DNA from: a bacterium
GTDB lineage: Bacteria > SAR324 > XYD2-FULL-50-16
Direction: 5' to 3'
Length of the DNA stretch: 64,000 nt
Assembly (NCBI GenBank): GCA_024275165.1
Contig: JAJRZQ010000002.1
Coordinates: 1-64,000 of the forward strand
The notes beneath the pieces are model-generated. The model saw only the letters and a program-made list of their open reading frames with translations. It had not been told where the DNA came from and ran no database searches. Of the stretch, positions 16,927-58,626 are shown one piece after another; the first letter of the stretch is position 1; the number at the start of each line of letters is the position of its first letter. Made by a program: the position numbers and the translations under genes.

Positions 16927-18030
16927 ATGAAAAAATCTCTCCAAACCCATTCTACCATCTCCTTTCTTGTTGCTTACGGGATATCGTTATATCTTTTGGT
17001 TTTGATGATGTGGCCCTACCTCAACACCTTGGTGTTTGCCACCATGTTGAGCGGGAGCTTTTTCCCCCTGCGCACCTGGATGAAGGAACGGCTACGGCTT
17101 TCCAATTTCTCCGCTGCTTGGGGAACCTTGACGGTGATCATCGTAACTCTATTTCTACCGGCCATCTACCTGATCGTCAGCCTTTCTGAAGAGGCGGTCA
17201 ATCTGTTCAATTATCTGAAGTCCGCACTGACCGAAGAAGTGGTGGAAAATATTCTCTTTGGTGAGGGGGTTTTTGGCAGGGGGTATCTTCCCAATGTTCT
17301 AGAAGAGGTTTTTTTGGCCTTTAACTTGGAATATAATACCTCTACCATTCAAACCTTGATCTTGGATTGGGCGAAGGTGACGAGCAGTTATTTTATCAAC
17401 GCGGCCAATCAGATTTTAGGTAACTTGTTGTTGTTTTTGTTTAACCTGGTAATATTGCTGGTTGTTTGCTTCTCTGTTTTTTTAGAGGGGGATCGCTTGA
17501 AGGCCTTTTTTCATCGGCTTTCTCCTTGGCCGATGGAGGAAGAGCAATTGATGGTCGATAAATTCAATCAAATGAATTACGCCACCTTGGTGGGGAACGG
17601 GATCGGCGGTTTGTTGCAGGGGGGGCTGGCAGGCCTTGCCTTCTGGTGGGTGGGGTTTGAGTCCACCTTTTTATGGGCCGCGGTGATGGTTTTTTTAGCC
17701 TTTATCCCCATGGTGGGCATGAGTTTTATCTATGTTCCCGCGGGGATTATCTTGCTGATGCAAGACCGCTTGGCCGAAGGGATCGGGCTGTTGGTTTTTT
17801 GCACTCTCGTTGCCCTGTGGGTGGAGCAATGGTTTAAACCGAAATTTGTGGGCAGCCGGGTGAAGATCCATTCGGTGCTGGTTTTTTTGAGTATCATTGG
17901 GGGGATGAGTGTCTTTGGGCTTTTAGGGATTTTTTACGGCCCCTTGATCATCTCCATTTTTTTGACCTTTGTGGAGATTTATCAAAAGCGCTATAGTGTG
18001 ACTGAAGCAACCCTAAGGCAGGAAGAATGA
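16927..18030 (+). CDS. AI-2E family transporter (PerM/YdiK type)
   Basis: 367 residues from ATG 16927, which has AGGA upstream; a TTG at 16906 is less likely. About eight membrane segments: two pairs at the N terminus, a long soluble loop (residues ~70-150), then a cluster from about 150 to 350 with FLAFIPMVGMSFIYVPAGI and the closing GIFYGPLIISIFLTFVEIY, characteristic of the AI-2E/UPF0118 family. Named for autoinducer-2 export but members also act in Na+/H+ transport; substrate unknown here. It overlaps the next gene by 4 nt. Confidence 0.88.
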   Translation: MKKSLQTHSTISFLVAYGISLYLLVLMMWPYLNTLVFATMLSGSFFPLRTWMKERLRLSNFSAAWGTLTVIIVTLFLPAIYLIVSLSEEAVNLFNYLKSALTEEVVENILFGEGVFGRGYLPNVLEEVFLAFNLEYNTSTIQTLILDWAKVTSSYFINAANQILGNLLLFLFNLVILLVVCFSVFLEGDRLKAFFHRLSPWPMEEEQLMVDKFNQMNYATLVGNGIGGLLQGGLAGLAFWWVGFESTFLWAAVMVFLAFIPMVGMSFIYVPAGIILLMQDRLAEGIGLLVFCTLVALWVEQWFKPKFVGSRVKIHSVLVFLSIIGGMSVFGLLGIFYGPLIISIFLTFVEIYQKRYSVTEATLRQEE

Positions 18031-21000
18031 AGCATTTCTTACAGGTTCAATCCCATCTCGATTCTTTTGGCCTACAGCGCCTAATGAAGCAGGTCAGGGA
18101 GGAGTTAAGAAAAAAACCTCTTAGTTTAGAGGAAATGTCGACGAAGTCGGAGGTGATTTGTATTAATTCTTCCAATATCGTGGAATACATCCCTCCAGGT
18201 ATGACTCAACTGCTTTATCCTAAAAACTTAACAACCAACGCCAAGCTGCCACCGGACTTCATTCAAAAAATAAATAAGCTTGTCGAAGAAAACTCCGGGC
18301 ATGTAACCGCTTATATTTTAGGGAATATTCAGACTAAAGAGCTCGAAAACTATCTTGATTTGGTTTTGGGGCTCAAACGGGATTACGATTTTGAGCCCCT
18401 GGTGTTGACGCACTTTTCCGACAACGATTTAGCCGGTTATCTGCGGGATTTCTTAACCCCAAAAATAGGGGGCGAGGCGGGGCTTGCTCAAGAGTTGAAA
18501 ATCGAAGTCTTTGAAGAAGGCGCCCCTACCCCCTGGACGACCTTGACCAAACCAGAGAACCTAAACCTCTTGCAAACCGGGCAAAGGCGACCGGGGATCA
18601 TTCAAAAACCTTTTTTTTCCGATATTTGTTTGAAGGTTAAAGTCAATCAGGTGGAAAAAACGGAAGAGTATTCCTTGGGCAAGCTGCGCACCGCTTTGGG
18701 TCATTTCAATAAAAAAAGAGATATCTCGGGGATGATTCATCGGGCTAAAAACAGCCTGTACCTTCGTTGGCGAGATATCGACGCCTTCAAGCTCGCCAGT
18801 TCCCAAGACCAGAAAACCATTGCCGGGGTTTCTTTGAGGGGGGAGTTTATTCCTGTGGGTAAATTTATTTCTGAAAATGTGGGTTCCGCCTTTTTAAAGC
18901 CGGCAGAGGTTGATTTTTTCCGCATGAAAATCGGCCCGGAGATGGTTGACCTTACCCCCGATGAAATCACGGAGATGGAAGTCAACCTAGAAACCCAACA
19001 GGTGATCTTTACCCGGGGGGTGGGCAAGACGGAGTTTCATGTCTCTCGCTTTCATCGCTTGAAGCTTTATAAGCAGGGCCGCATTGGGGAGGTGCATAAA
19101 TGCGTTTCCTTTAATCGGGGTGAATCCAATTTTGAAATCATCTCGCGCTACCTAGGGAGCCGCTACGCGGAATATGAAAAAGCCCGCGCCTTAAGAAAGG
19201 GTTCGGTGGAACTCGATTATCTCGCCACCCAAAAGGTGTTTGCCGGTGACCTTTCGGCCCAGTTGGTGTTATCCTCCATGCGCCTTTTGGGGGTGCTGCC
19301 TCTAGAGGCGCCCTGTTTGGGTTTTGGCCCTAAGGACATAAAAAACGCCTCGGGTTTGCAAGCGGACTTTCAGCAGAGGGAAGAGGATTTAAAGAGGATT
19401 TTTACCCATATCTTGGATTTAAGCAGCACCCCGAACTTTACCGATACCGATTTTAAACGCTTGACCAAACGCATTACCTTTTATTTGGCGCAAAAAGACC
19501 CCTTGAGCGTGACTGGTGAGGTGATGGACGACCTCTTGATTGAGTTGGAACATCTAACCCAATACATGGATGATTTCTTTAAACTCAATTTATACAACCG
19601 CTTTCAAGAAGAATTGGAGGTCGATCAGGTGGGGGAAGAAACTGAAATTTTGGAGATTCCCCCAGAAGAGCATCATCTCGATAGTGAATCCAAGGATTTT
19701 ATCAGTCAAAATTACGGTTTTTTTCGCAAAAGAGAACTGGTGATGGCGGCCATCAACCGCGTGGAGTTGATGCGGTTTTATTTGAGTCATATCAAAGCGT
19801 CTGCCGAAGATCCAAATTTAGAGCCTGCCTTGGTGGTTTTTTCCTCTAAGAATAGTTTGGTGGAGCATTACAAAAAAACGGCCTACCCTGCCTTTGCCTT
19901 GACGCAAGTCTTATCTCCCGATTTATTCAAGGCGGAGTCGCAAGATGAGGATTTAATTTTTATCCGCTTCATGCGGGGCTTGACCCAAAAGGTATTTCGC
20001 AAGGCGCAAGAGGTGAATCAGACCTTTCACCATCAATATAAGCATACGCTAGCCGAGTTGGGTTTTCTTGCTTCGGAAAAGCTTGAACACTTAAAAGAGG
20101 AATTGGCTTTTTTAGAAGATCCAGCCAATAAGGAAAAGGCCTACCAGCAGCTTTTGGAAAAAATAACCGAAGTCTTTCAAGCTCAGGTGAAAGAACGGCA
20201 AGAGCGGATTCAGGCCTTAAAGCAAGAGCAAGAAGACCTGACAAAGGAGGTGAAGACCGAGTTTAGCCGTTTAGGGAAACTCTTAAAAGAAGAGTTGGAT
20301 TTAGCGCAAATCGAAGAGGTACTCGCTGCCATGACTCCCAAGGTCGAGGCGATGCGAGAGCGCATCTTAGCCCATCACCGGGCCAAGCGGGCAAAGATTA
20401 TTCGCATCTACAACCCCTTCAGTAAACTCTACGCGCAGCTTTTAGGCTATCACCAAAGGTGGGTGGCTTACATCTCTCTTTTTCAAAAGGCGTTGTTTAT
20501 CACCAAGCGGGATCAGTTGATTTTAGAGTTGAAAAAGCAGGCCAAGCAGCTTTTGACGCTTCCTCCAGAGCAGATCAAGGCCAAGGTGGTGGAGTGGCGG
20601 GGGAATCAACCCGCTCCAGAAGCGGCAAAAGAGGCTCAGGGTCGTTTGCTGCAAAAGTCAAAAGAGATTGAGAAAAAGCTTGTCGAGCTCCGTCAACTTT
20701 CAGGAAAGGGGATGTTTCAAGACAAGGAAAAAGAGCAGGGCCCCTTGACCCCTTATTTAGAGTATTATTTGGCCGATGCGGAGCGTCTCGCCACCAATGT
20801 CAAAGAGCTGGGAAGATATTTTCAGGAATTAGACCGTTTGGAACAAGAACTGTTTGACCTGCACAATCAAGTGGCAGAGGCGAGAATAGCCCAAGAGCAG
20901 CTATCGCTGAGGTTGAAGGTGGCAAAATTGGCTTTGGCCGACCCGAACTCTCAAGAGCGGATTTTAACCCTTTTGGGAGCAAAGCACGAGGTTCCTCCAG

Positions 21001-22016
21001 AGATTAAAAAAGAATTGAGTGGGCTGCGTACCCAACTCAATGAATCCAACCGGGCGTTTCAGAAAGTAGCGACCTCGGCCTCCTTAGAGGAAATCACTAA
21101 TTTCCGGGCTTTGTTGAGCGAGTCGGCCCGACGCGATAAGATTCATGACCTCTCTAAACACTTGGTCAATATTCACCAAGGGATGGTGGCGATTGGGCCG
21201 GAGATCGAAGGAGAGGAAAAAGAATTGGTTTTTTTAGAGTCTCAAGAGGAGAATTTAGAGGAACTCGCCATGTCCAAGGCCTTGCCCAGCACCCGAATCC
21301 TCTTGAAAACCCAGTATATCCCCTTAGTGGAAAGGGAAAAACGGATGCTCGCCCGGGCCGATCAATTTTTAGGGGAGGTCATGAGCAAGGGGCAGGCTTT
21401 AAAAGATAGCTTTGTGAATTGCTTTTTTCGGAAGCGTTATGCCTTTCCCCAATTTTTGCGGGGTAGTTTTGCGATGGATTCGCAACGGGGGGCGAAAAGC
21501 AACACGGCAAAAAACATCAATTCCGCCTATTTGCTGCTGGGGGAGAAGTTTGCCAACGGCTGCGCCCCGGCCTTGCAATATGAGGATAAGGTGCATCTAA
21601 AAAAGATTGAGGTCTTAGGCCCCGAAGCGATCCATAAAAGAGTTCGGGAGATGTGGACCGGTGGGATTACAGATCGTTTCATCCTGCTGCCTTCGGTTTA
21701 CACCTTGAATGAGGCCTTGGGTTTTTGCGAGAAGAAAGAGGCTTTGACCCAAGAGATTCAAGTGGTGGGGCAATCACGCCATAGCCTGATTTTGATTTAC
21801 TGTGGAGAGATCAACTGGGCCGCTTTGCAAGGAAATCCAGCCTTGCTGGATCAATACCACCGCGCCATTATGAGCAATATTTTTATTGATATCAATGGGG
21901 TGGATGTTTACAATAATCGGCAATCCATTTATGAGGCTTTGATTCAAGAGACCTTTGGGCAGAGCAACGACCAAATCAGCCAAGGCATTGCCTTTCGTTT
22001 TTTAAACGAAGTTTAG
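18027..22016 (+). CDS. 1329-residue coiled-coil protein, unknown function
   Basis: I do not recognise this protein. It has no signal peptide or membrane segment. Residues 1-540 look globular (alpha/beta mix). Residues about 670-790 and 845-1090 are dense in Glu, Lys, Gln and Leu with heptad character, predicted to form two long coiled coils separated by a short globular link (RIYNPFSKLYAQLLGYHQRW). A conserved-looking C-terminal domain of ~170 residues follows (FPQFLRGSFAMDSQRGAKSN, MWTGGITDRFILLPS, LILIYCGEINW). No Walker A motif is visible, so it is not an SMC-type ATPase. The ATGA overlap with the AI-2E permease implies co-translation. A large cytoplasmic scaffold is the best inference. 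Confidence 0.85.
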   Translation: MKHFLQVQSHLDSFGLQRLMKQVREELRKKPLSLEEMSTKSEVICINSSNIVEYIPPGMTQLLYPKNLTTNAKLPPDFIQKINKLVEENSGHVTAYILGNIQTKELENYLDLVLGLKRDYDFEPLVLTHFSDNDLAGYLRDFLTPKIGGEAGLAQELKIEVFEEGAPTPWTTLTKPENLNLLQTGQRRPGIIQKPFFSDICLKVKVNQVEKTEEYSLGKLRTALGHFNKKRDISGMIHRAKNSLYLRWRDIDAFKLASSQDQKTIAGVSLRGEFIPVGKFISENVGSAFLKPAEVDFFRMKIGPEMVDLTPDEITEMEVNLETQQVIFTRGVGKTEFHVSRFHRLKLYKQGRIGEVHKCVSFNRGESNFEIISRYLGSRYAEYEKARALRKGSVELDYLATQKVFAGDLSAQLVLSSMRLLGVLPLEAPCLGFGPKDIKNASGLQADFQQREEDLKRIFTHILDLSSTPNFTDTDFKRLTKRITFYLAQKDPLSVTGEVMDDLLIELEHLTQYMDDFFKLNLYNRFQEELEVDQVGEETEILEIPPEEHHLDSESKDFISQNYGFFRKRELVMAAINRVELMRFYLSHIKASAEDPNLEPALVVFSSKNSLVEHYKKTAYPAFALTQVLSPDLFKAESQDEDLIFIRFMRGLTQKVFRKAQEVNQTFHHQYKHTLAELGFLASEKLEHLKEELAFLEDPANKEKAYQQLLEKITEVFQAQVKERQERIQALKQEQEDLTKEVKTEFSRLGKLLKEELDLAQIEEVLAAMTPKVEAMRERILAHHRAKRAKIIRIYNPFSKLYAQLLGYHQRWVAYISLFQKALFITKRDQLILELKKQAKQLLTLPPEQIKAKVVEWRGNQPAPEAAKEAQGRLLQKSKEIEKKLVELRQLSGKGMFQDKEKEQGPLTPYLEYYLADAERLATNVKELGRYFQELDRLEQELFDLHNQVAEARIAQEQLSLRLKVAKLALADPNSQERILTLLGAKHEVPPEIKKELSGLRTQLNESNRAFQKVATSASLEEITNFRALLSESARRDKIHDLSKHLVNIHQGMVAIGPEIEGEEKELVFLESQEENLEELAMSKALPSTRILLKTQYIPLVEREKRMLARADQFLGEVMSKGQALKDSFVNCFFRKRYAFPQFLRGSFAMDSQRGAKSNTAKNINSAYLLLGEKFANGCAPALQYEDKVHLKKIEVLGPEAIHKRVREMWTGGITDRFILLPSVYTLNEALGFCEKKEALTQEIQVVGQSRHSLILIYCGEINWAALQGNPALLDQYHRAIMSNIFIDINGVDVYNNRQSIYEALIQETFGQSNDQISQGIAFRFLNEV

Positions 22017-22118: not shown

Positions 22119-22646
22119 TCAAAGGCACTTGCCGATACTGTTTGTTTTGCACTCCTCATCTTTAATTCCCTGGGCACCGCTGAGGTTGGCTAGGCTGAGG
22201 TCGGTTCCTTCGATCAGCGCGTCTTCTAAATTGGCTCCCGCAAAGGTGCTGCCTTTAACGGTGGCGCTGGTCAAGATGGCATCGGCCAGGTTGGCTTGGG
22301 AAAAATCGACCCAGACCAATTGGGTTCTGGCCAAGTTCGCCTCACTCAAATCAGCGCCCGTAAAGTTGACTCGCATCAGTTTTGCCCCGCTTAAGTTTGC
22401 CTCGGAGAGGTTCGCTTTGGAGAGATCAACATTGGTCAACTTGGCCCCCTTCAAGTTGGCCCCTTCTAAATGCGCCCCAACCAGATCGAGACCGGTTAGG
22501 TTGGCGCCGGAAAGGTCGCAACTGGAAAAGGTGCCGGAACTGCACTTTTTAGATTGAATCAATTTTTGCACATCTTCTTTTTTAAAGGCCTGAGCCGCTG
22601 GAGTAAAAATAAGAGAGGCCGCCAAGGAAAGATAGAGGTACTTCAT
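22119..22646 (-). CDS. Exported pentapeptide-repeat protein
   Basis: 175 residues from ATG 22646; an upstream TTG at 22670 would spoil the signal peptide. Residues 1-20 form a signal sequence (MKYLYLSLAASLIFTPAAQA). After a short helical part with a likely disulphide pair (KKCSSGTFSSC) come about 20 A(D/N)LxG-type pentapeptide repeats (SGANLTGLDLVGAHLEGANL and onward), which fold into a right-handed quadrilateral beta helix. A last CK/CL pair near the C terminus may cap it. Unlike gyrase-protecting Qnr/MfpA proteins this one is periplasmic, so a DNA-mimic role is unlikely. Function unknown. A decayed relative lies at 23280-23511. Confidence 0.85.
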   Translation of the reverse strand: MKYLYLSLAASLIFTPAAQAFKKEDVQKLIQSKKCSSGTFSSCDLSGANLTGLDLVGAHLEGANLKGAKLTNVDLSKANLSEANLSGAKLMRVNFTGADLSEANLARTQLVWVDFSQANLADAILTSATVKGSTFAGANLEDALIEGTDLSLANLSGAQGIKDEECKTNSIGKCL

Positions 22647-22922
22647 GATAGAACCTAAAAGAGGGGTCAATCTGAGAAAAAATTCGACTTATTACATTAG
22701 TATAGGCGAAAAAGGTAAGAAGGGTAAAGCCTTTTTTTTACTCGCGGAAAAACCCCGTACTAGGCCCTGGCCCCGAAAGGGACTGAAGGAGCCCCGCTCC
22801 ATCAACCCACAGAGTAAATGGACTGGTTTTGAGGGTCGGGGCGCGTTGGCCACTTTAAACGCCAGAGTCCTCTTGCTTGGAGGGATGGTTTCCAGGCTTT
22901 TGAAAAAGAAAAAAGAACGGAA

Positions 22923-23678: not shown

Positions 23679-24956
23679 ATGCAAAATAGCCTTACTAAAA
23701 AACTGGGTCTGTCCGTAGCCGCCATGGCTTTGGCGGCTACCAGCCTATTTACCGCCAGCGATGCTCAGGCAGTTCCTGCCTTTGCTCGCCAAACCGGTAT
23801 GTCTTGTTCTTCTTGCCATTACCAAAGTTTCCCTGCTTTGAATGGCATGGGCCGTAGCTTTAAAGCGGGCGGCTATACCATGAAAGGGATGCAAGCCTCT
23901 ATTGAAGGTGAGCGAATTGATCTTCCTGTCAACTTGAACTTAGCCCTTGCTTGGAAAACTTTTTATGAAAAGAAAAGTGGTGCAACGGTCGGCGAAATTT
24001 TGATGCCGGATGAGTTCGCGATTCTTGCAGGTGGTCGTATGGCCGCAAACATCGGTTTCTTGGCTGAAATTGGTGATTTGAATAAAAATGAAAGCAACTT
24101 TTCCAATGTAAAGATGCAGTTCAATGTCTACAATGAAGGTGGTACTACCGTCGCCATCATCCCCTTTTCTGGGGGTATGGGCGCCGCGTACGGCTTTGAA
24201 TTGATGAACACGGGGAACCAGGCTTCTCAGCGTCCCTTGGAAGCCAAGCGCGCCTTGAACCCTGGTTTGAACGGTATCATTGGTCAAGCTGGTTCAGGTA
24301 CAGGTGTATCCTTTGTAGCTCATAACTTGGCTACGGGCTGGTGGGTCAACTACAGTCTCTGGGCTCCTCTGCACAGCAATGACATGCAAGCTCTCGATGG
24401 TGGCTCAATCGGTGATCCCCTCCCTGGCGATCCTACCGGTATGGCCGCTTACATTCGTGCCGGCTATTTCTTTGACTTAGCCGGCTTTGATAGTGGGGTC
24501 GCTATTGCGAGTCGCACCGGTACGGCTAAGACCAGCTTTGCTTGGGCTGCCAATCCTACGCAAACCATCACCAAAGTGAAGGTCGCCGGCAACACGGTTG
24601 ATTTTCAGATGCAAGGTGGGGATGATTTCCCTCTGGCTATTTACTTAGTGAAAGCGGACGCGGGCACTTCGCCTACCACCAAAGATAACGATACCTATTA
24701 TGCAGGTTACGCTGATGGTGGCGCCTCCGGGTTGGGTACGATGCTGAAGTATGCCGTAACTCCTGGCATCTTGGTTCATTATGCTTCTTCCAGCCTCACC
24801 TACGGCACAGCTAGCACAAAGCTAACTGAGTCGAGTGTGGGGATTGATTTGAAGCCCTCTGAAAATGTCACCTTCCAGATTTTTCAACATAGCGAAAAAG
24901 ATGGCGCGGCAGATGCTGTAAACACAATGGTTATGGGCTGGTTCGTAGCGATGTAA
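23679..24956 (+). CDS. Cyc2-like fused monoheme cytochrome-porin
   Basis: 425 residues. A signal peptide (residues 1-31, ending DAQA) precedes PAFARQTGMSCSSCHYQSFP, with a single heme-c site at Cys43-Cys46-His47, then LNGMGRSFKAGGYTMKG. This N terminus closely resembles Cyc2, the outer-membrane Fe(II) oxidase of neutrophilic and acidophilic iron oxidisers, in which one heme is fused to a 16-strand beta barrel. The remaining ~370 residues are rich in Gly, Ala, Thr and aromatic residues with alternating strands and no membrane helices, as expected of a porin. Length matches Cyc2. The codons are more GGT/AAC-biased than in neighbours, and it has its own leader and a strong terminator, suggesting high expression. 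Related monoheme porins of unknown role exist, so iron oxidation is an inference. Confidence 0.65.
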   Translation: MQNSLTKKLGLSVAAMALAATSLFTASDAQAVPAFARQTGMSCSSCHYQSFPALNGMGRSFKAGGYTMKGMQASIEGERIDLPVNLNLALAWKTFYEKKSGATVGEILMPDEFAILAGGRMAANIGFLAEIGDLNKNESNFSNVKMQFNVYNEGGTTVAIIPFSGGMGAAYGFELMNTGNQASQRPLEAKRALNPGLNGIIGQAGSGTGVSFVAHNLATGWWVNYSLWAPLHSNDMQALDGGSIGDPLPGDPTGMAAYIRAGYFFDLAGFDSGVAIASRTGTAKTSFAWAANPTQTITKVKVAGNTVDFQMQGGDDFPLAIYLVKADAGTSPTTKDNDTYYAGYADGGASGLGTMLKYAVTPGILVHYASSSLTYGTASTKLTESSVGIDLKPSENVTFQIFQHSEKDGAADAVNTMVMGWFVAM

Positions 24957-28642: not shown

Positions 28643-31135
28643 CTAAAACGCCCTGATGCAGTTGCCCGGTGGTGGCGACATCGGAAGGGGGGCTATTGCT
28701 TTTTTTGTTTTTTGCGTTTGGAAATTGCAAAACTTGTTGAAATCAATTCGCTTTAAATCCCCTATCAAAAGTTTAAACTCATCGGGGATATAATATTTGA
28801 CTCGCTCGGTCGCAAATTTAACCATCTTTGCGTCCAGGATTTGATAGGCCTTAAAGGCTTGGTCTGCGAGGATCCAGCCAAGATAGGGCTGGAGTTTGCG
28901 GGTGATCTGAGCAAATTCGTTCAAGAGGTCGCGGGCCAACGCCAATTCTTTTCGTTCGGCGCTGTTTGGTTTCTTTAAGTGCGCCTCGATATTTTTACAG
29001 AGTTTTAGATCGGTGGTTTCTAGTTCTTCCAGTTTTTGCGGAACCACCAAAAAATGCACTCGAACCCGCTTGGTCTCTTGGGAGAGGTCAAACTCGTTCC
29101 CCATCGCCAGTAAAGGGGTAAAGCTTTCGGGGGCATGCAGAATCGCTTTTTGATTGACAGCTCGCGCAAAAATCGCCTCTAAAACCTCTTGCGCGGAATT
29201 GACGACCACTTCATGCAATTCTTCATAAAAGGGAGTGGGACGGAACTTTTTTTGAAAGGAGGGTGAGAGGAAGTTGAAGTACCCCTCTTGGATTTGACCG
29301 AGCAGGAATTTACAAATTCCGTTGGGGTTGGAGGATTCCTTGCCCTGTTTGGCCAACTTTGCCATGAAGTGGGTAAATTTTTGGGTGAGCTTTTCAAATT
29401 CCTCACCGAATTCCTTGGGCCCCCATTTGGGGTTGGAAATCAGGCTCAATCCGGGCTCAATCAGGTGTTGAGCCGATAAAAGGGGGTGGAAGTCGGTTTC
29501 GTCGGCATCGGGGTTGAATCCGCGTTCGTTGAGGCGGGGAATGATATTTTTTGCCTCCAGCCATTGGGCGAATTTTTTGCGAGTGATCGGTAGGCCGGGG
29601 TTGAGAACCAGTTTCTCATAAAAAATATCAAAGAAATCACGGCCAAAGCGCTTCATGAGGGATTCTTTGGAATCGCGGAACATTTTTTGGAATTCCTTTT
29701 CCAAAAGGGAAGCCAAGAGAACGCCTTCGGTTGCCGAAACCAAGTGGAGATTGAAGTAAAGCTGGGTGGGGGGTCGACCCGCATCGTCAAAGAGACTCAT
29801 GCCTTTGCCTTGCAGCTTTTGGGGGAGCAATTTCATCTGGTATTGCTCGGCAAGCATCGAACGGATCAACTTGCCTAAGAGGGGGGGGATGTTGTCCCCG
29901 ATCCATAAGGGGTAGCTGGATAAGAGCAGGTCGATATTGTGGAGCAGGTAAGTTTCTTCATGGGTCTGTTTGGAGCCGTCATAAGATTGGTGTTGGCGCT
30001 CAACAATCTGCTTGACCAGTTGATCGATGGCCTGGGTTCGTTCTTCAGCGGAGGTGTTTTCATCATTGGGGGCATGAAAAAAGATGGATTTCTTCCAGAG
30101 GGGGGGGTCGAATTGACTGCGAGCGACCATCACTAAAGAGCGGATACGCCCAAAAAGGGTGGTTTTGTTGAATATTTTTGGGTCGCGCCCTGCTAGTTGG
30201 TTTTGCTCCATCATTTGCAGGGACTTGTAAATATTGGCAAAAATCTGTTGATTGTTTTTACAGGGAGGCCCCTCAGGCATAAAGTCGAAGAGCCTTTTTT
30301 GGAGGTAGCTGGGGCTCATCCCTTGGGTTAGATCCTCAAACATCTTCGCCAAGGCTTGCGGAGGGAATTTTTGTGAGGTCACCTCGGTTTGAAAGTTCGA
30401 GGTTAATTCATTGTAACGGCTTGTTAAGTCAGCTAAAAGGATAATGTTGACCGCCTCAGCGGGGGTGAGGTCGACCTTTCTGGCCTGACTCAGTTCCTTT
30501 AATTTCTCCGCGATGTGTATTTTGATGTTGGTGAAATCCACCAGTTCGCGCGCGGTGGCCTGAAAACCTTTGGTGCGCTGGCTGCGGGCGATCAGTTCTT
30601 CCACTAGGTCGGGCTGGGCGGCAATCTCAGGGGGGATGGCCTGAAACTCTAAATCAACCTTGGCGGTCAACTGGGCCTCAAGTTTTTTATTCGAGCCCGT
30701 TACCAAGACCGAGCCCTGATTTTTATAAACTTCCGCAAAAAGTAAAGGCAGGGTGCAGGTCTCTCCCTTGCTGCGGTATAGCTGCACATGCAGCAGGTTT
30801 TCTGAGTCTTTGGCCACCCGCCAAGCGAGTTGGCGCATTCCCCTCAAGGTGCCGTTGATGTTGGTTTTTTCCTCAATGGTGACTTTTTGCGTTGGTCCAT
30901 TGGGGTTTTTAGGGTTGATGGGCCGCTTGGTCTCGACCTTGTGTACCAGTTTATATTCAAAGTGATCGCAGAAAAAACCCTTTGCTTCTAAGAGATCGCG
31001 CAGTAAATCAACCCCCTCCACTTGACGGCGGTCTTGCAGGCTGATGAGGCATAGACTTTGTTCTAATTGAGTCCGGCTGGGACCTGAACCGATTTTGAGA
31101 ACCTCGCCTTGTTCTGTTGATTTGAGTACCGCCAT
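28643..31135 (-). CDS. 830-residue protein of unknown function
   Basis: No signal peptide or membrane span. Mostly alpha-helical and charged, with an N-terminal mixed domain (residues 1-160, including HVQLYRSKGETCTLPLLFAEVY and GSVLVTGSNKKLEAQL) followed by long helical stretches. I see no nucleotide-binding P-loop, zinc cluster or known catalytic motif. ATG start at 31135 without a clear ribosome site. The downstream 199-residue gene overlaps or abuts it. Size, charge and lack of motifs resemble the 1329-residue protein at 18027-22016, but I see no clear shared sequence. Function unknown. Confidence 0.8.
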   Translation of the reverse strand: MAVLKSTEQGEVLKIGSGPSRTQLEQSLCLISLQDRRQVEGVDLLRDLLEAKGFFCDHFEYKLVHKVETKRPINPKNPNGPTQKVTIEEKTNINGTLRGMRQLAWRVAKDSENLLHVQLYRSKGETCTLPLLFAEVYKNQGSVLVTGSNKKLEAQLTAKVDLEFQAIPPEIAAQPDLVEELIARSQRTKGFQATARELVDFTNIKIHIAEKLKELSQARKVDLTPAEAVNIILLADLTSRYNELTSNFQTEVTSQKFPPQALAKMFEDLTQGMSPSYLQKRLFDFMPEGPPCKNNQQIFANIYKSLQMMEQNQLAGRDPKIFNKTTLFGRIRSLVMVARSQFDPPLWKKSIFFHAPNDENTSAEERTQAIDQLVKQIVERQHQSYDGSKQTHEETYLLHNIDLLLSSYPLWIGDNIPPLLGKLIRSMLAEQYQMKLLPQKLQGKGMSLFDDAGRPPTQLYFNLHLVSATEGVLLASLLEKEFQKMFRDSKESLMKRFGRDFFDIFYEKLVLNPGLPITRKKFAQWLEAKNIIPRLNERGFNPDADETDFHPLLSAQHLIEPGLSLISNPKWGPKEFGEEFEKLTQKFTHFMAKLAKQGKESSNPNGICKFLLGQIQEGYFNFLSPSFQKKFRPTPFYEELHEVVVNSAQEVLEAIFARAVNQKAILHAPESFTPLLAMGNEFDLSQETKRVRVHFLVVPQKLEELETTDLKLCKNIEAHLKKPNSAERKELALARDLLNEFAQITRKLQPYLGWILADQAFKAYQILDAKMVKFATERVKYYIPDEFKLLIGDLKRIDFNKFCNFQTQKTKKAIAPLPMSPPPGNCIRAF

Positions 31136-48289: not shown

Positions 48290-48601
48290 ATGAAAAATAA
48301 AATGATCGGTCTTTTTATCGCGGTTTTGTTCATTCTTCCTGCTTCGGCTTTGGCGGACGGTAAGGCTTTGTTCAAGTCGAAGGGTTGCTCTGGTTGTCAT
48401 GGGGCCATGGGGGCGAAAGCGAGTGGGATGATCCCTCAGTTGATGGGGAAAGATGTCGCCTTGTTGCAGGAAAAGCTTACCGGCTATCGCGACGGTACCA
48501 TTAAGAGCAAGGGCGCGATGCTGATGAACAATAAAATGGTCAAGTCTTTGAGTGATGAAGAGATCGTCGCCATCACCACTTGGTTGGCGGGTCATCAGTA
48601 A
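48290..48601 (+). CDS. Monoheme cytochrome c (class I)
   Basis: 103 residues with a signal peptide (MKNKMIGLFIAVLFILPASALA) and one heme-c site, CSGCH (Cys33, Cys36, His37). The C-terminal helix SLSDEEIVAITTWLAG is typical of small periplasmic cytochromes c of the c553/c5 kind, with a Met in the MLMNNKM stretch as likely sixth ligand. It carries electrons in the periplasm. It lies directly before msrA. Confidence 0.9.
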   Translation: MKNKMIGLFIAVLFILPASALADGKALFKSKGCSGCHGAMGAKASGMIPQLMGKDVALLQEKLTGYRDGTIKSKGAMLMNNKMVKSLSDEEIVAITTWLAGHQ

Positions 48602-50916: not shown

Positions 50917-50948
50917 TTGACTCTATACTGGGGTATAGGGTGTATCTT
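50917..50948 (+). promoter_or_regulatory. MerR-type promoter of merR copy 1
   Basis: -35 TTGACT (50917-50922), 20-bp spacer with the dyad TATACTGGGGTATA, -10 TATCTT (50943-50948). The start codon of merR lies 18 bases further with AAGGGG between. The 20-bp spacing and dyad match MerR-family promoters, so this is probably an autoregulated operator. Near-copies lie at 4043 and 52072. Confidence 0.75.
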
Positions 50949-50966
50949 CAATTTAAGGGGTATGAA

Positions 50967-51368
50967 ATGGAATTGAAGATTGGAGAATTAGCCAAACAAG
51001 CGGGGATTCATATACAAACGGTGCGGTATTATGAGCGTAAGGGGTTGCTGTTTGCCCCGAGTCGCTCGGCCTCAGGCTATCGGTATTACTCCCTTGAAAG
51101 CTTAAAGCGGTTGAATTTTATTCTTAAGGCCAAAGAGCTTGGATTCAGCTTAAAAGAGGTTCAAGAATTATTGGAACTCCGGGCGGACCCAAAAGAAAGC
51201 TGCCAGCAGGTGCAAGCCCAAGCGAGGTTGAAACAAGTGGAGGTGCAAAAGAAAATCAATTTTCTGACTCGACTCGATCACAGTCTAGGCCAGTTGATTC
51301 AAGCATGTGAGCATCGCAGCCTAGAAGATCAATGCCCCATCTTAACGAATTTGGAGGATGAAGCATGA
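50967..51368 (+). CDS. merR: MerR-family regulator, Hg(II)-type cysteines (copy 1)
   Basis: 133 residues from ATG 50967, preferred over an upstream in-frame start because AAGGGG fits it. The N-terminal winged helix (IGELAKQAGIHIQTVRYYERKGLL) and long dimerisation helix are standard. Cys79, Cys114 and Cys123 (ESCQ, QACEHRSLEDQCPIL) have the same 35- and 9-residue spacing as Cys82/117/126 of Tn501 MerR, which bind Hg(II). It would activate its promoter when mercury is present. The next gene overlaps its stop by 4 nt. Confidence 0.9.
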   Translation: MELKIGELAKQAGIHIQTVRYYERKGLLFAPSRSASGYRYYSLESLKRLNFILKAKELGFSLKEVQELLELRADPKESCQQVQAQARLKQVEVQKKINFLTRLDHSLGQLIQACEHRSLEDQCPILTNLEDEA

Positions 51369-51625
51369 AACCCATGACCTTGATTTATTTTAAGGGCTGC
51401 CCCAATGCCCAACCCATGAGAAAAATGCTCCTGCAAGCCGGGGTGGAGGAGATTGAAGAATGGATTCAAGATGAGCTCCCCCCGGGGCACCGCTTTTTGG
51501 GTTATTCTTCCCCAACGGTGATGCGGGGGGAGTCGCTTCTTTTTGGAACCCGGACCGACGCGGCCCAGGGGGGCTGTAGTTTATCCCTGCCGAATCTGGA
51601 AGAGTTGAGGGAACTGCTTGCCTGA
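51365..51625 (+). CDS. Small thioredoxin-like protein, CPNA motif
   Basis: 86 residues. TLIYFKGCPNAQPMRKMLLQAG is a thioredoxin-type strand, CPxA loop and helix with a single active-site cysteine. YSSPTVMRGESLLFG matches the cis-proline region, and a late GGCSL resembles the final cysteine of mer-linked thioredoxin-like proteins. Similar small proteins occur in mercury operons; the role (thiol or metal relay) is not established. It is coupled to merR copy 1 by an ATGA overlap. Confidence 0.7.
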   Translation: MKPMTLIYFKGCPNAQPMRKMLLQAGVEEIEEWIQDELPPGHRFLGYSSPTVMRGESLLFGTRTDAAQGGCSLSLPNLEELRELLA

Positions 51626-51654
51626 AGGGGTTGCTCTTTCCTTTCTTTTCCTCT

Positions 51655-51939
51655 TCAACTTCCTTCCGGCTGTAGGCCCACCCCTGCGGCCCGCAAGGCG
51701 GCCTCGGTGATGCCCGTGCCTTGGCGGCAAGCCAACAATTCTCCATTGACCGCAACTGAGGGGAGCTGTTTGACCCCATAGGCCTTCGCCTTATCCCGAC
51801 ATGTGTTGCTTTCGCGGCCTGCATTGAGGTCATAAAGCAGCACTTCGCAAGTGTCACAGGCAATTTGTTTCACTAGTTGCACAAGTGGCTCACAGATGGG
51901 GCAATTGGCGGTAAAGACTTCGACTGTTTTCGTTTTCAT
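51655..51939 (-). CDS. Thioredoxin-fold protein, CPIC motif
   Basis: 94 residues from ATG 51939, preceded by AAGG; an ATG at 51963 lacks a ribosome site. VEVFTANCPICEPLVQLVKQ has a CxxC redox or metal site, further cysteines follow (ACDTCEVLL, NTCRDK, LACRQG), and LPSVAVNGEL holds the cis-proline. Seven cysteines in 94 residues suggest metal binding. It is divergent from merR copy 2 and convergent with the CPNA protein, inside the mer cluster. Confidence 0.75.
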   Translation of the reverse strand: MKTKTVEVFTANCPICEPLVQLVKQIACDTCEVLLYDLNAGRESNTCRDKAKAYGVKQLPSVAVNGELLACRQGTGITEAALRAAGVGLQPEGS

Positions 51940-52071
51940 GACCTTGCTCCGATTGAGTTTCACAGAGGTTTTACCAGACTGAATCGTCCAGAGAAAGGGT
52001 TTCTGTTATCTTTAGGATAAGCCCGGTACCTGCCTATAGAGTCAAGGCTGAAAAAGAATTATTTTTTGGGC

Positions 52072-52103
52072 TTGACTCGGTACTAAGGTATAAGGTTTAG
52101 ACT
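52072..52103 (+). promoter_or_regulatory. MerR-type promoter of merR copy 2
   Basis: -35 TTGACT (52072-52077), 20-bp spacer, -10 TAGACT (52098-52103); GGTATAAGGTTTAGACT is shared base for base with the promoter at 4043. The left half of the dyad (GTACT) is less symmetric. The ATG of the gene is only seven bases after the -10, so transcription would begin at or next to the start codon. Confidence 0.75.
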
Positions 52104-52109
52104 TAAAGC

Positions 52110-52577
52110 ATGAAACAAACCCAATTACTGCAAATCGGTGCCTTGGCCAAACAAGCGAGGGTCAACATTCAAACGATTCGCTATTATGAGCGCCGGGACT
52201 TGTTGCGCCCCCGGCAAAAGTCGGAGTCCGGTTATCGGTTGTTTGAGCCCGATGCGGTGAAAACCATCGGCTTCATTAAGCAGGCGCAAAAATTGGGGTT
52301 TAGTTTGGCCACCATAGCCGATTTATTGGCCTTGCGAGAGCCCGGTGCGGTCAATTGCCAAAAGGTGCGCGGTAAGGCAGAAGCCAAGTTGGTCGAAATA
52401 CAAGAAAAGCTCCATCAGCTAGAGCGGATGAAACAGACGATTCAGGATTTAATCCAGAGTTGTAAGGCTCAAACAGAGCAAAAGGGTTGCCCCATTCTTG
52501 CGGGCATGGAGGTAAATACGCATGAACCTCCATGGAGATTAGCGGAGGGTTTGCATTGCGAATGTTTAGAACCTTAG
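52110..52577 (+). CDS. merR: MerR-family regulator, Hg(II)-type cysteines (copy 2)
   Basis: 155 residues. Winged helix IGALAKQARVNIQTIRYYERRDLL, and Cys83, Cys118 and Cys127 (VNCQ, QSCKAQTEQKGCPIL) with the 35- and 9-residue spacing of Hg(II)-binding MerR. A C-terminal extension ends in HCECLEP, adding two cysteines. It diverges clearly from copy 1, so not a recent duplicate. No ribosome site is present and the ATG coincides with the expected transcription start, so the mRNA may be leaderless. It heads the merF-merT-merP set. Confidence 0.9.
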   Translation: MKQTQLLQIGALAKQARVNIQTIRYYERRDLLRPRQKSESGYRLFEPDAVKTIGFIKQAQKLGFSLATIADLLALREPGAVNCQKVRGKAEAKLVEIQEKLHQLERMKQTIQDLIQSCKAQTEQKGCPILAGMEVNTHEPPWRLAEGLHCECLEP

Positions 52578-52658
52578 ACTCAAAGCTTGCGGGCTTTTGG
52601 AGGCGATGCATTGAAATCGACCTCCAAAATTTAAAAAATAGTTTTTTTGGGAGGGTTT

Positions 52659-52910
52659 TTGAAAAATAAATGGATGATTTTTGGCGGCGTCGGAGCGGGC
52701 ATCGCGGCTTTATGTTGCTTTACCCCCCTTTTGGTGATCGCCTTGGCCGCCGTAGGCTTGGCAGGGCTGAGCGCCTATCTGGATTTTGTGCTTTTACCCC
52801 TGTTGCTTGTCTTTGTGGCCTTATTTGCTTTAGGATTATATCAGGCCCGTAAACTCAAAAACTGTGTCCCCGATAATCTAGACAAAAGCTTAAACGAGGA
52901 GGCAGAATGA
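52659..52910 (+). CDS. merF: MerF-like mercury transporter
   Basis: 83 residues from TTG 52659, placed after GGGAGGG; an ATG at 52674 is an alternative. Two membrane helices. The vicinal pair in AALCCFTPLLVIALAAVGL and a second cysteine near the C terminus (KLKNC) are typical of MerF, which moves Hg(II) across the inner membrane using paired cysteines. It overlaps merT by 4 nt. Confidence 0.82.
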   Translation: MKNKWMIFGGVGAGIAALCCFTPLLVIALAAVGLAGLSAYLDFVLLPLLLVFVALFALGLYQARKLKNCVPDNLDKSLNEEAE

Positions 52911-53263
52911 AACAAAAAGATTCAAACCTCGCTTTATTGGGTGGGGGGCTCTTTACGGCTTTTTTGGCTTCACTTTGTTGCCTTGGCCCCTTCGTGCTTT
53001 TGACTCTCGGTATCGGGGGGGCCTGGGTGGCGAATTTAAGAATTTTGGAAGACTATCGCTATCTACTGATGCTGTTTACGGCATTGTTGTTGGGATGGGC
53101 TTACAAAGGCGTTTTTTTGAATAAGGAAACCGGAGAATGCTCGGCAGAACAAATTTGCGCTCGTCCTGCGGTGAAAAAAAGCTATAAAATCGGTTTTTGG
53201 TTGGTTTTGCTTGGGGTTGGCCTTTTGTTCGCCTCACCGGAGTTGGCGCCATTTTTTTATTAA
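52907..53263 (+). CDS. merT: MerT mercuric transport protein
   Basis: 118 residues, three membrane helices. The first bears the Hg-carrying pair in TAFLASLCCLGPFVLLTLGIGGAW (Cys24-Cys25); the cytoplasmic loop has the second pair (GECSAEQICARP). This is the standard MerT layout. It takes Hg(II) from MerP into the cell, where MerA would normally reduce it; no merA is present here. Coupled to merF by ATGA and followed 8 nt later by merP. Confidence 0.92.
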   Translation: MKQKDSNLALLGGGLFTAFLASLCCLGPFVLLTLGIGGAWVANLRILEDYRYLLMLFTALLLGWAYKGVFLNKETGECSAEQICARPAVKKSYKIGFWLVLLGVGLLFASPELAPFFY

Positions 53264-53271
53264 GAGGGAAA

Positions 53272-53562
53272 ATGAAAATCAAAATTGTGGGTTTTGTTTT
53301 GGTGATTGGCTTGTTGGTAAACCCCATGCTTTGGGCAGCGCAACAGCAGGTGACTTTAAAGGTTGAGGGGATGACTTGCGGGATGTGCCCTCTTACTGTA
53401 AAATCAAGCCTGAAAGCCGTAAAATGTGTTTCCAAGGCCGAGATTTCGTTAGCGGAGCAAACTGCTAAGGTGCGGTTTGATGATGCCCAGTGCCAAGTCG
53501 AAGAGCTGATTGAGGCAACGACTCGCGCGGGCTATCCCTCAAGGCTGAAAGAAACAAGCTAA
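53272..53562 (+). CDS. merP: MerP periplasmic mercury-binding protein
   Basis: 96 residues from ATG 53272 (GAGGG upstream). A signal peptide (to about residue 23) precedes one heavy-metal-associated domain with GMTCGMCP (Cys36, Cys39). The ferredoxin-like fold continues to AGYPSRLKE. It scavenges Hg(II) in the periplasm and hands it to MerT. Confidence 0.92.
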   Translation: MKIKIVGFVLVIGLLVNPMLWAAQQQVTLKVEGMTCGMCPLTVKSSLKAVKCVSKAEISLAEQTAKVRFDDAQCQVEELIEATTRAGYPSRLKETS

Positions 53563-53587
53563 TCTTACTTTTTTTTGCAGGGGTCTT

Positions 53588-53740
53588 ATGAAAAGCGTTA
53601 AATTTCTTGTCTTGATTGCGCTGGTTTTTTCAGTTTCCGGTTGTGGTTGGCTCTGGGGTGGGTGTCATGGTTCGCGCCATGGCCATCATGAGAGTCGCTC
53701 TGTAGAGCAAAACTCCGCTGTTGGCGCAGAGGGGGAGTAG
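53588..53740 (+). CDS. Tiny His-rich lipoprotein
   Basis: 50 residues. The signal ends in a lipobox (VSGC, Cys19), giving a mature peptide of 32 residues that begins CGWLWGGCHGSRHGHHESR. One cysteine and four histidines in the first dozen mature residues suggest metal binding. It follows merP by 25 bases. A similar small His-rich lipoprotein lies at 63623-63802 after the Cus operon. No family recognised. Confidence 0.65.
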   Translation: MKSVKFLVLIALVFSVSGCGWLWGGCHGSRHGHHESRSVEQNSAVGAEGE

Positions 53741-53936
53741 GGTAAAGCGGTAAACAAATCGCCTGGAATCAATGAGCCCAGCAGGCTGAGACCGCCTTGC
53801 CGCCTTGAAACCCATTCGTTTGGGGGGAGGCATAAGTTCGCTAAGCCGCTTTGAGGGGGATCAAGCCAAGCCCGATTGAGGCTCTTTGTGGGAAAGAAGC
53901 CCGGTTTTAATTTAGTAACCCGGCGTATATATTTTG

Positions 53937-54014
53937 GGAACCTCTGAAAAACTCCTTGCCTACCGCTTGTTCAAGCGGTAGGCTCGTGCCCTTCGGGCTG
54001 ATTATAGCCCTGGG
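53937..54014. mobile_element. MITE-like element, truncated copy C fused to a REP-like repeat
   Basis: The left 75 or so bases match copies A and B (GGAACCTCTGAAAAACTCC, the perfect 26-bp palindrome at 53958-53983, then CTCGTGCCCTTCGG). At about 54011 the match stops and the REP-like block begins. The right half of the element is missing. Confidence 0.7.
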
Positions 54015-54059
54015 GGCGCTTACGCCCAGCGAGCGCTCGCGCGAGCCGCCCCACCGGCT
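54013..54059. repeat. REP-like palindromic repeat, copy 2 (inverted)
   Basis: Reverse complement of 2-48 with one mismatch. It contains GCGAGCGCTCGC and GCTCGCGCGAGC palindromes and the GGGCG/CGCCC hairpin. It joins the truncated MITE copy C. The remaining non-coding DNA to 54249 holds no gene that I can support. Confidence 0.7.
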
Positions 54060-54249
54060 GCGGTCTCGGGCAGAGCGTCATCAAGGCGATCTGTCTTTAA
54101 GCGAACTCTGCGAAGGTAAAGGGAGCGGTCTGTAGGCTGCGCCTAGGTCGGTCCAGTTTATGGAGAAACAGTAATAGGCGCCGGATTAATCTTGACTCTG
54201 AAGAAAATATGCTTTAAGTCTAAAGAAGAAGAAAAATATAAAAATCGAT

Positions 54250-54657
54250 ATGCTGCAAATTCGTCAACATTCCTCTAGGGTCGCGGCCCCACTGGTGATT
54301 CTATTACTCCTGCTTACGCTGGCTTGTAGTTTTGCCTATCAAGGTCTGCCGGATTCTTTGAGGAGTTCGAACTCCTTTTTGTTGGCGGCTTCCCCCTCTC
54401 ATTTTAGCTATCATCAACATCGGCAAGCCGAACCTTCTCCTCTGGATTCATTTTGCTGTGTTGAGGTCATGGCCCCCAGCAAAGATGTGGCCGTTAAACT
54501 GGACCCTTCTCTTTTTGCTTTGCTTGCCGCTCCCTTGGTGATCCTCTGGGTTTTGCCCTCACTTTGGAAGAGAAGGCTGAGCTTCTCTGTTTCTCGATTC
54601 ATACTTCTCTCCCCTCCTCAAAGTTTGGTGGACCGAAAAGTCTGTCTACTCTGTTAA
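54250..54657 (+). CDS. Small membrane protein, unknown function
   Basis: 135 residues. Two hydrophobic segments (VAAPLVILLLLLTLACSFAY and ALLAAPLVILWVLPSLW) flank a short loop with FSYHQHRQAEP and FCCVEVM, which could bind metal. Such small His/Cys membrane proteins often precede metal-efflux operons, but I recognise no family. It lies before the HD-GYP gene and the Cus genes. A -35-like TTGACT lies at about 54191 upstream. Confidence 0.55.
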   Translation: MLQIRQHSSRVAAPLVILLLLLTLACSFAYQGLPDSLRSSNSFLLAASPSHFSYHQHRQAEPSPLDSFCCVEVMAPSKDVAVKLDPSLFALLAAPLVILWVLPSLWKRRLSFSVSRFILLSPPQSLVDRKVCLLC

Positions 54658-54675
54658 GTTTCCTTATATATTTTA

Positions 54676-54966
54676 TTATTTCTTGCTTGGTTTAAGACCA
54701 AACCATTGAGCGTAGCTTATTATTTGCGCAAATTGGGCAGGGGCAATTGAACCTTGAAGGCTAGGGTTATATTGCTCTACAGGTCTCATGATTGCACGCG
54801 ATTGAGGGTTGTTGCCCTTTGCGCAAATAATAATTTTAGTTTCCAGGTTTTTATCATGTTGCATCATCAATATAATAAAGGGAGAATGAAAATTGTTTTC
54901 CGTTATCTTATTTTTTTTAAGCCCTTTTAGTGGCTCCCATCGACTCTTTAGGTGGGAGGAATTCAT
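54676..54966 (-). CDS. Possible small protein, unknown
   Basis: A 96-codon frame from ATG 54966, opposite the HD-GYP gene. The composition is plausible for a soluble protein (KIIICAKGNNPQSRAIMRP), it fills an otherwise empty 300-base gap, and no ribosome site is visible. Nothing recognisable. It may be real or chance. Confidence 0.3.
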   Translation of the reverse strand: MNSSHLKSRWEPLKGLKKNKITENNFHSPFIILMMQHDKNLETKIIICAKGNNPQSRAIMRPVEQYNPSLQGSIAPAQFAQIISYAQWFGLKPSKK

Positions 54967-54984
54967 TTTTGCAAAAGAGCGGGT

Positions 54985-56187
54985 ATGAAATTAAAGGGTA
55001 AAATCAAACCGTCGATTCCATTATGGATTGCCTTGGGGCTTGGTTTGTTGATCAGTCTTTTGGTGTTTCGTTTGGTCTCCTTTAGCGCCAAGGTCACCGA
55101 TTATTACACTCCGGCGGTTTTGGTTTCCGAAGACTTTGTCGAGGCGGCGGAGCATTTGCGCGACAGCCTAGGGCAAAAGGAACCGGCAGCATCAACCAGT
55201 ATGGTGCGGATTCATTTTCGGAGTTCCTTTCAGAAATTTCGTAAGTTCATGGCCTTGTTTCATCGTGATGGCTTGCATTTTAACGCTCAAGTGATCGAGG
55301 TGGGGGACGAGGTATTGGCCTTGCTCGCAGCTCACAACTTCAATCCCTTGCCAAACCGATTGGATAAATTGACCGAGGTGGCAAGTCAAAACCTGAGGCA
55401 GCACCAAGAAGAAATCCGCCGCGCTAAATTAAACATCCAATTCAGTGCCTATTTGGTCGCTCTATTGAGTTTGTTGCTTTTGGGCGCGGGTTTTTATTAC
55501 ACGAAACTAGAGCTTCGCCTGCAAGAAATTAGGGAGCAGGAAGCAGCGACCTTGTCGGCGATCAAGGCGTTGGTCAATGCCTTAGAAGCCCGTGATGCCT
55601 ATACCAAGGGGCATAGTGCCCGGGTAGCGCGGTATGCGTTGCAACTGGGCAAGGCCCTGAATTGCTGTTCCTGCGACTTGGATGCCCTGGAATTAGCGGC
55701 GATTATGCACGATATCGGTAAAATCGGGGTGCCCGACCAAGCTTTGCTGAAGGCGGGAAAGCTGACCGAAGAAGAATACGGCTTGATCAAAAAACATCCG
55801 CGCATTGGAGAAACCATCTTAGCCGATTCAGCGCACCTGGAAAAAATTATCCCAGGGGTGTTGCTGCATCATGAGCGCTTTGATGGAACCGGATACCCTC
55901 AAGGGATATCCGGGGACCGTATTCCCTTAATGGCGCAGATCATCTCGGTGGCGGACGCCTATGACGCCATGACCAGCACCCGCCCCTATCGTCAAGCCTT
56001 AAGCCCGAAGCAGGCGATGGAGGAATTAAAACGAGGAATCAACACCCAATGGGAGCAAAAAATCATCGAATGCTTTATCCAAACCTTACAGAACCCGGAC
56101 TCAACCAGCCAGTTGGAATTTTTTCTGCAGCCGACTCCGGGCAACCCCCCAACCTCTGTGCCCAAGTCAGGTGCTAGATCCAATTAA
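54985..56187 (+). CDS. Membrane HD-GYP domain protein (c-di-GMP phosphodiesterase)
   Basis: 400 residues from ATG 54985. Two membrane helices (~10-30 and ~160-180) enclose a ~130-residue helical periplasmic domain. The C-terminal HD-GYP domain has GHSARVARYAL, the HD pair in IMHDIGKIGVPD, HPRIGETIL, HHERFDGTGYPQG (the GYP motif) and ADAYDAMTS. It would hydrolyse c-di-GMP in response to a periplasmic signal. The haem-binding gene follows by 15 nt, linking signalling to the metal-efflux operon. Confidence 0.9.
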   Translation: MKLKGKIKPSIPLWIALGLGLLISLLVFRLVSFSAKVTDYYTPAVLVSEDFVEAAEHLRDSLGQKEPAASTSMVRIHFRSSFQKFRKFMALFHRDGLHFNAQVIEVGDEVLALLAAHNFNPLPNRLDKLTEVASQNLRQHQEEIRRAKLNIQFSAYLVALLSLLLLGAGFYYTKLELRLQEIREQEAATLSAIKALVNALEARDAYTKGHSARVARYALQLGKALNCCSCDLDALELAAIMHDIGKIGVPDQALLKAGKLTEEEYGLIKKHPRIGETILADSAHLEKIIPGVLLHHERFDGTGYPQGISGDRIPLMAQIISVADAYDAMTSTRPYRQALSPKQAMEELKRGINTQWEQKIIECFIQTLQNPDSTSQLEFFLQPTPGNPPTSVPKSGARSN

Positions 56188-56202
56188 AAAAAGGAGTTTT
56201 TT

Positions 56203-56685: not shown

Positions 56686-56739
56686 GCCCTTTTGCAAACT
56701 AAGCTGGGGAGGATTCAATAATTTTTTAGGTACAAGAAG

Positions 56740-57210: not shown

Positions 57211-57248
57211 AATTAGACGAAGCTAAATTTTACAAGAGTAAACCCAAA

Positions 57249-58607: not shown

Positions 58608-58626
58608 CTTGAAGCAAAGGCAACCT

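What the first reader, a model, noticed from the sequence alone, without database searches (positions are those of the whole stretch)
23679..24956. Cyc2-like outer-membrane cytochrome-porin: possible Fe(II) oxidase
The mature N terminus PAFARQTGMSCSSCHYQSFP with LNGMGRSFKAGGYT strongly resembles Cyc2, a single-heme cytochrome fused to an outer-membrane barrel that oxidises extracellular Fe(II). Length (425 residues), single CxxCH, barrel-like remainder, own terminator and distinct codon use all fit. This would make the host a candidate iron oxidiser.
Basis: partly seen in the sequence, partly recalled or inferred. Interest (0 to 1): 0.7.

Follow-up and report, generated by a model that had tools for sequence, protein, structure and literature searches.

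The report
Cyc2-type outer-membrane iron oxidase gene
The gene encodes a member of the known Cyc2 family, a one-heme protein fused to an outer-membrane pore that takes electrons from dissolved iron, here carried at a conserved place in the genomes of a little-studied bacterial lineage (most likely SAR324) that lacks RuBisCO.

Summary
Window 23679-24956 (+) encodes a 425-residue protein with a signal peptide, the Cyc2 motif AVPAFARQT, one CxxCH, PAL four residues later, and a predicted OprP/OprO-like barrel of 16 strands plus one loop hairpin. 29 named relatives were found, including Gallionella and Sideroxydans. Profiles from Gallionellaceae proteins (the group of Cyc2 Cluster 1) recognise both heme domain and barrel; a Cluster-2-like profile recognises the heme domain only. 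It is therefore a true, Cluster-1-like Cyc2, not another monoheme porin. The odd codon use is real but does not mean recent import: the gene sits at the same place in three genera of its family, is missing there in the sister genera checked, and its orthologs share the bias. The genome has two heme-copper oxidases, a diheme c4-type cytochrome and small c-type cytochromes, but no RuBisCO and no MtrB/PioB. Fe(II) oxidation is thus plausible, most likely in a heterotroph. A second, distant Cyc2-like gene lies just past the window. The host is probably SAR324, where Cyc2 was already reported in 2022 (PMC9769843). Verdict: new member of a known kind; Fe(II) oxidation inferred, not shown.

The parts
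23679..24956 (+). cyc2-like gene, 425 aa, fused monoheme cytochrome and outer-membrane porin
23679..23771 (+). signal peptide, residues 1-31, cut after AQA (by inspection)
   Evidence: sequence; helix 4-23 in the model
23769..23795 (+). Cyc2 motif A-V-P-A-F-A-R-Q-T (AxPxFAR[QK][TY])
   Evidence: motif definition PMC8406198
23805..23819 (+). heme c site CSSCH (C43, C46, H47), the only CxxCH
23832..23840 (+). PxL motif (PAL), four residues after CxxCH
23880..23882 (+). Met68, the only Met or His besides H47 that is invariant in 30 of 30 aligned relatives: candidate distal heme ligand (inference)
23934..24950 (+). beta barrel, residues 86-424: 16 family strands plus a low-confidence hairpin (282-301) in a variable-length loop
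24989..25020 (+). intrinsic terminator-like stem-loop followed by a T run; the gene looks monocistronic
48290..48601 (+). class I cytochrome c, 103 aa, a possible periplasmic electron carrier; 23 kb away, not an operon partner

Best explanation
[quoted passage not shown] Dissolved Fe2+ would enter the pore, give one electron to the heme (His47, probably with Met68 as distal ligand) and leave as Fe3+ outside the cell. Periplasmic cytochromes (diheme c4-type and small class I) would pass the electron to an aa3-type oxidase. Shown here: family membership, predicted fold, conserved locus, presence of oxidases and soluble cytochromes, no RuBisCO, no MtrB/PioB. Inferred: Fe(II) as substrate, the electron route, the Met68 ligand. 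The likely physiology is lithoheterotrophic or auxiliary Fe(II) oxidation, not autotrophic growth by the Calvin cycle.
For: Motif and architecture match the published definition. Relatives in Gallionella, Sideroxydans, Nitrospirae, delta-type MAGs and Chromatiaceae, 26-39% identical in the alignment. A Gallionellaceae profile gives 173 bits for the whole protein and 70 bits for the barrel alone; a Nitrospirae/delta profile gives 247 and 132; the Cluster-2-like profile gives 67 bits for the whole and nothing for the barrel; shuffles stay under 7 bits. Tree: starred clade with the two same-family orthologs (100/99) and a 100/100 branch separating Cluster-2-like proteins. Fold: best PDB match is OprP 2o4v, a structural homolog named for Cyc2 of PV-1; a Gallionella Cyc2 modelled as control shows 16 strands in the same order. 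Same gene order at roughly 34-54% protein identity in three genera argues for long functional retention and against contamination. Oxidases at C39 and C14; a c4-like diheme cytochrome on C3, 27-31% identical to the cytochromes encoded directly downstream of plasmid cyc2 genes.
Against: No activity data. The gene stands alone: no cytochrome or oxidase gene next to it, unlike the Chromatiaceae and several plasmid relatives. The protein sits on the longest end branch of its clade (1.26-1.28), and its last residue is Met where 20 of 30 relatives have Phe. The heme domain is modelled with low confidence (pLDDT mostly 29-42). The tree does not fix where Cluster 2 attaches (AU p 0.41).
Confidence: 0.68

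Rival explanations
1. A Cyc2-family cytochrome-porin that takes electrons from a donor other than Fe(II) (an electrode-like solid, another cell, Mn(II) or a reduced organic) or that serves iron detoxification instead of energy gain.
For: Cyc2 homologs are found in many heterotrophs with no known Fe(II) oxidation (PMC9769843), and the authors of the family tree warn that other functions are possible. No RuBisCO here; no operon link to respiration.
Against: Profile match to Gallionellaceae proteins over both domains, where Fe(II) oxidation is the best supported role; terminal oxidases and soluble cytochromes are present.
Confidence: 0.25
2. A monoheme porin that is not Cyc2 and only resembles it at the N terminus.
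For: No Pfam or NCBIfam match; the other Cyc2-like protein of this genome matches family profiles in the heme region only, so such proteins exist.
Against: The barrel alone (residue 81 on) matches Gallionellaceae and Nitrospirae/delta Cyc2 barrels at 1e-20 and 2e-39; all motif criteria are met.
Confidence: 0.04
3. A recently imported or contaminating gene, as the odd codon use might suggest.
For: Lowest GC3 and poorest codon fit of the 25 window genes tested; not explained by the codon use of EF-Tu.
Against: Same position and neighbours in G002 and G004, with the same shift to GGT and GCT against different backgrounds; own clade with them.
Confidence: 0.03

Closest known systems
Cyc2 Cluster 1 (Gallionellaceae; Mariprofundus ferrooxydans PV-1 type)
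   Same: Signal peptide, AxPxFARQT-CxxCH-PxL, FKAGGYTM stretch, 16-strand OprP-like barrel, one heme; profile match over both domains
   Different: Only about 27-31% identical to the Gallionellaceae proteins; forms its own clade with orthologs of two related genera; host not known as an iron oxidiser
Cyc2 of Chromatiaceae (Thiorhodococcus mannitoliphagus, Thiocystis violacea; L003, L007)
   Same: Nearest rows outside the host family by tree path, 36% identical, weakly joined (84/88)
   Different: There the gene is followed at 25 bp by a diheme cytochrome frame; here it stands alone
Cluster-2-like Cyc2 (Acidithiobacillus type; plasmid copies in Caballeronia, Ideonella, Methylocystis)
   Same: Heme domain motif
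   Different: Barrel not recognised by profile; the Met of GYTM is missing; often followed by a c-type cytochrome gene
Cyc2 homologs reported in SAR324 MAGs of the Southwest Indian Ridge (PMC9769843)
   Same: Same phylum if the host is SAR324; same kind of gene; heterotroph with oxidase
MtrAB, PioAB and MtoAB porin-cytochrome complexes
   Same: Heme protein in an outer-membrane barrel
   Different: Multiheme and 26 strands; no MtrB/PioB family protein in this genome

Membership tests
Cyc2 | Signal peptide and a single CxxCH near the N terminus | tested here: met
   (signal peptide by inspection, no SignalP)
Cyc2 | AxPxFAR[QK][TY] just upstream of CxxCH, called unique to Cyc2 | tested here: met
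   AVPAFARQT, residues 31-39; definition in PMC8406198
Cyc2 | PxL four residues downstream of CxxCH | tested here: met
   PAL at residues 52-54
Cyc2 | At least 365 residues | tested here: met
   425 aa
Cyc2 | Fused 16-strand porin resembling OprO/OprP | tested here: met
   16 strands plus a low-confidence hairpin in a variable loop; best PDB match OprP 2o4v, E 1.5e-9, TM 0.54; Gallionella control 16 strands
Cyc2 | Match to FeGenie Cyc2 HMMs | not testable with these tools
   HMMs not held; substitute profiles built here match strongly
Cyc2 Cluster 1 | Groups with Gallionellaceae and Zetaproteobacteria Cyc2 rather than Clusters 2 and 3 | tested here: inconclusive
   Profiles favour the Gallionellaceae side over Cluster-2-like, but the tree cannot fix the attachment of Cluster 2 (AU p 0.41), and no Cluster 3 or PV-1 sequence was at hand
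Cyc2 | Oxidises Fe(II), with a redox potential suited to neutral pH | not testable with these tools
   needs biochemistry
Cyc2 Cluster 2 (Acidithiobacillus type) | Barrel and heme domain of that type, usually in an operon with cyc1 | tested here: not met
   barrel not recognised, no cytochrome gene next to it

The most novel reading that the evidence does not exclude
One branch of a SAR324 family gained a Cluster-1-like Cyc2 in its ancestor and has kept it at one chromosomal site, so that an uncultivated group without RuBisCO makes a living partly by oxidising dissolved Fe(II) with oxygen; the window's genome adds a second, very different Cyc2-like protein of unknown cluster.
Probability: 0.4. 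Interest if true: 0.5.

Novelty: new member of a known kind. Interest (0 to 1): 0.36.

Why it matters
Cyc2 is the main marker gene for Fe(II) oxidation at neutral pH. A deeply conserved copy in a heterotroph-like lineage is a good test of whether the marker means iron oxidation outside the classical iron oxidisers. It also shows a practical point: neither Pfam nor NCBIfam matches this protein, so routine annotation by those libraries would leave it unnamed.

Tried and rejected
Own 16S: not in the assembly; of 11 relatives searched only G010 has one, and a SAR324 probe recalled from memory did not match it within 3 mismatches, which is inconclusive (other family, probe not verified). Solved structures by sequence: none. 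Codon bias as a sign of high expression: EF-Tu and ribosomal proteins of this genome show only weak bias and do not explain it. Codon bias as recent transfer: rejected by shared synteny and shared bias. 18 strands: rejected as the family topology because the two extra strands are a low-confidence hairpin (pLDDT 65-69) in a loop of variable length (occupancy 0.74-0.88, many insertions after residue 295), and the Gallionella control has 16. Plasmid search with the second Cyc2-like protein: nothing.

Full report
OBSERVATION. The ORF at 23679-24956 (+) is real, 425 aa, with one CxxCH and the quoted N terminus. The published description of Cyc2 (PMC8406198) asks for a signal peptide, AxPxFAR[QK][TY] just upstream of CxxCH, PxL four residues downstream, at least 365 residues, and a fused 16-strand porin that resembles OprO/OprP. 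Each sequence criterion is met (AVPAFARQT, CSSCH, PAL). Neither Pfam nor NCBIfam matches.

RELATIVES. A scan of one genome per species found 29 relatives, among them Gallionella, Sideroxydans, Hydrogenophilales, Nitrospirae, delta-type MAGs, Thiorhodococcus and Thiocystis. Identities to the window protein in the alignment are 26-39%. Invariant in 30 of 30 rows: R37, Q38, G40, C43, C46, H47, P52, L54, G58, F61, A63, Y66, M68, G70, G119, R120, G126, G209, G281, G313, N396. H47 and M68 are the only invariant Met or His residues, so M68 is the best candidate for the distal heme ligand; this is inference, and the Cluster-2-like proteins do not keep it.

PLACEMENT. Plasmid-borne relatives from Paraburkholderia, Caballeronia, Ideonella, Methylocystis and Polymorphobacter were taken as Cluster-2-like; this rests on PMC10654088, which links Acidithiobacillus Cyc2 to Burkholderiales and Hyphomicrobiales homologs, and was not tested against Acidithiobacillus Cyc2 itself. 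The window protein forms a starred clade (100/99) with two same-family orthologs, weakly next to Chromatiaceae (84/88); Cluster-2-like proteins sit behind a 100/100 branch. Because the tree is unrooted and the attachment of Cluster 2 is loose (AU p 0.41), profiles were used as well: the Gallionellaceae profile scores 173 bits on the whole protein and 70 on the barrel alone, the Nitrospirae/delta profile 247 and 132, the Cluster-2-like profile 67 and nothing; 200 shuffled copies stay under 7 bits. Gallionellaceae belong to Cluster 1 together with Zetaproteobacteria and Chlorobium. So the protein is Cluster-1-like; Cluster 3 and PV-1 itself could not be tested.

STRUCTURE. The AlphaFold model (mean pLDDT 71.8, pTM 0.74) has an N-terminal helical heme region at low confidence (no heme in the model) and a barrel with 18 DSSP strands. 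Two of them, 282-289 and 292-301, lie in a low-confidence loop whose length varies between relatives. A Gallionella Cyc2 modelled with the same sequences shows 16 strands in the same order; my count merges split strands and leaves out one short loop strand. Foldseek puts OprP (2o4v) first, E 1.5e-9, TM 0.54, with OprO also found; the control matches the same porins. OprP and OprO are the homologs named for PV-1 Cyc2.

LOCUS. Upstream are a pentapeptide-repeat gene, a 1329-aa protein, an AI-2E-type transporter, TrkA and DNA ligase; downstream a formiminotransferase-like protein and a 4-alpha-glucanotransferase. The order ligase, TrkA, transporter, 1329-aa protein, cyc2, formiminotransferase, glucanotransferase, large protein is kept in G002 and G004, two other genera of the family. 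In four further genera of the family (G001, G003, G005, G006, G007, G008) the 1329-aa gene is present, in all but G001 followed by the pentapeptide gene, but then other genes follow, without cyc2. Whole-genome searches agree: full-length cyc2 in three of ten family genomes, and a diverged one in one genome of another family of the class (G028). The gene was therefore gained once, or lost several times, and then kept over three genera. The odd codons are seen in the orthologs too, most clearly GGT and GCT, and do not match EF-Tu; their cause is open.

HOST. The record is unnamed. Four genomes of the same class match SAR324 entries in Table 1 of PMC9031357 in size, contig number, approximate completeness and G+C: G043 with GCA_002685535, G021 with GCA_002082305, G033 with GCA_002683655, G046 with GCA_002726945 (contamination estimates differ for some, and G+C was sampled from three short stretches each). 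I take the host as SAR324 with about 85% confidence. Cyc2 in SAR324 MAGs was already reported from the Southwest Indian Ridge (PMC9769843).

RESPIRATION. The genome has two heme-copper oxidases (C39 with COX3 and a weak COX4-like gene, C14 with COX2 and SCO1-like genes), a diheme c4-like cytochrome on C3 that is 27-31% identical to the cytochromes encoded directly after plasmid cyc2 genes, and several class I cytochromes. No RuBisCO and no MtrB/PioB. A path from Cyc2 through periplasmic cytochromes to oxygen is thus available, but its use is inferred.

SECOND COPY. At contig 64313-65560 (-), 313 bp beyond the window, lies a 416-aa protein with ALPVFARKY and one CxxCH. It matches Cyc2 profiles in the heme region only, is found in no other genome of the class at full length, and its cluster is unknown.

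VERDICT. A genuine Cyc2, most likely Cluster-1-like; Fe(II) oxidation is the best explanation, with about two in three confidence. It is a new member of a known kind; the conserved locus in a lineage without RuBisCO is the interesting part.

Noticed in passing
contig C16 64313-65560 (-), just beyond the window end (L035:814-2061:-): Second Cyc2-like protein, 416 aa, ALPVFARKYNISCNSCHTAFPKL; its barrel matches no Cyc2 profile built here, and no other genome of the class has it at full length.
   Followed up: partly
window 56740-57209 (+): Class I cytochrome c frame interrupted by an in-frame TAG at 57085-57087, after which the conserved C-terminal part continues; a recent pseudogene, readthrough or assembly error.
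   Followed up: partly
window 50940-63155: Heavy-metal island: two MerR-type regulators, MerT-like transporter, heme-binding cytochrome, and OEP/HlyD/RND efflux genes of the Cus type.
   Followed up: no
window 18027-22016 and 28643-31135: Large proteins of 1329 and 830 aa without Pfam match; the first is present in all ten family genomes.
   Followed up: partly
window 22119-22670 (-): Secreted pentapeptide-repeat protein on the opposite strand next to cyc2, present in most sister genera at the same locus.
   Followed up: no
L003 and L007 (Thiorhodococcus, Thiocystis): Purple sulfur bacteria with a Cyc2-like gene followed at 25 bp by a diheme cytochrome frame.
   Followed up: no
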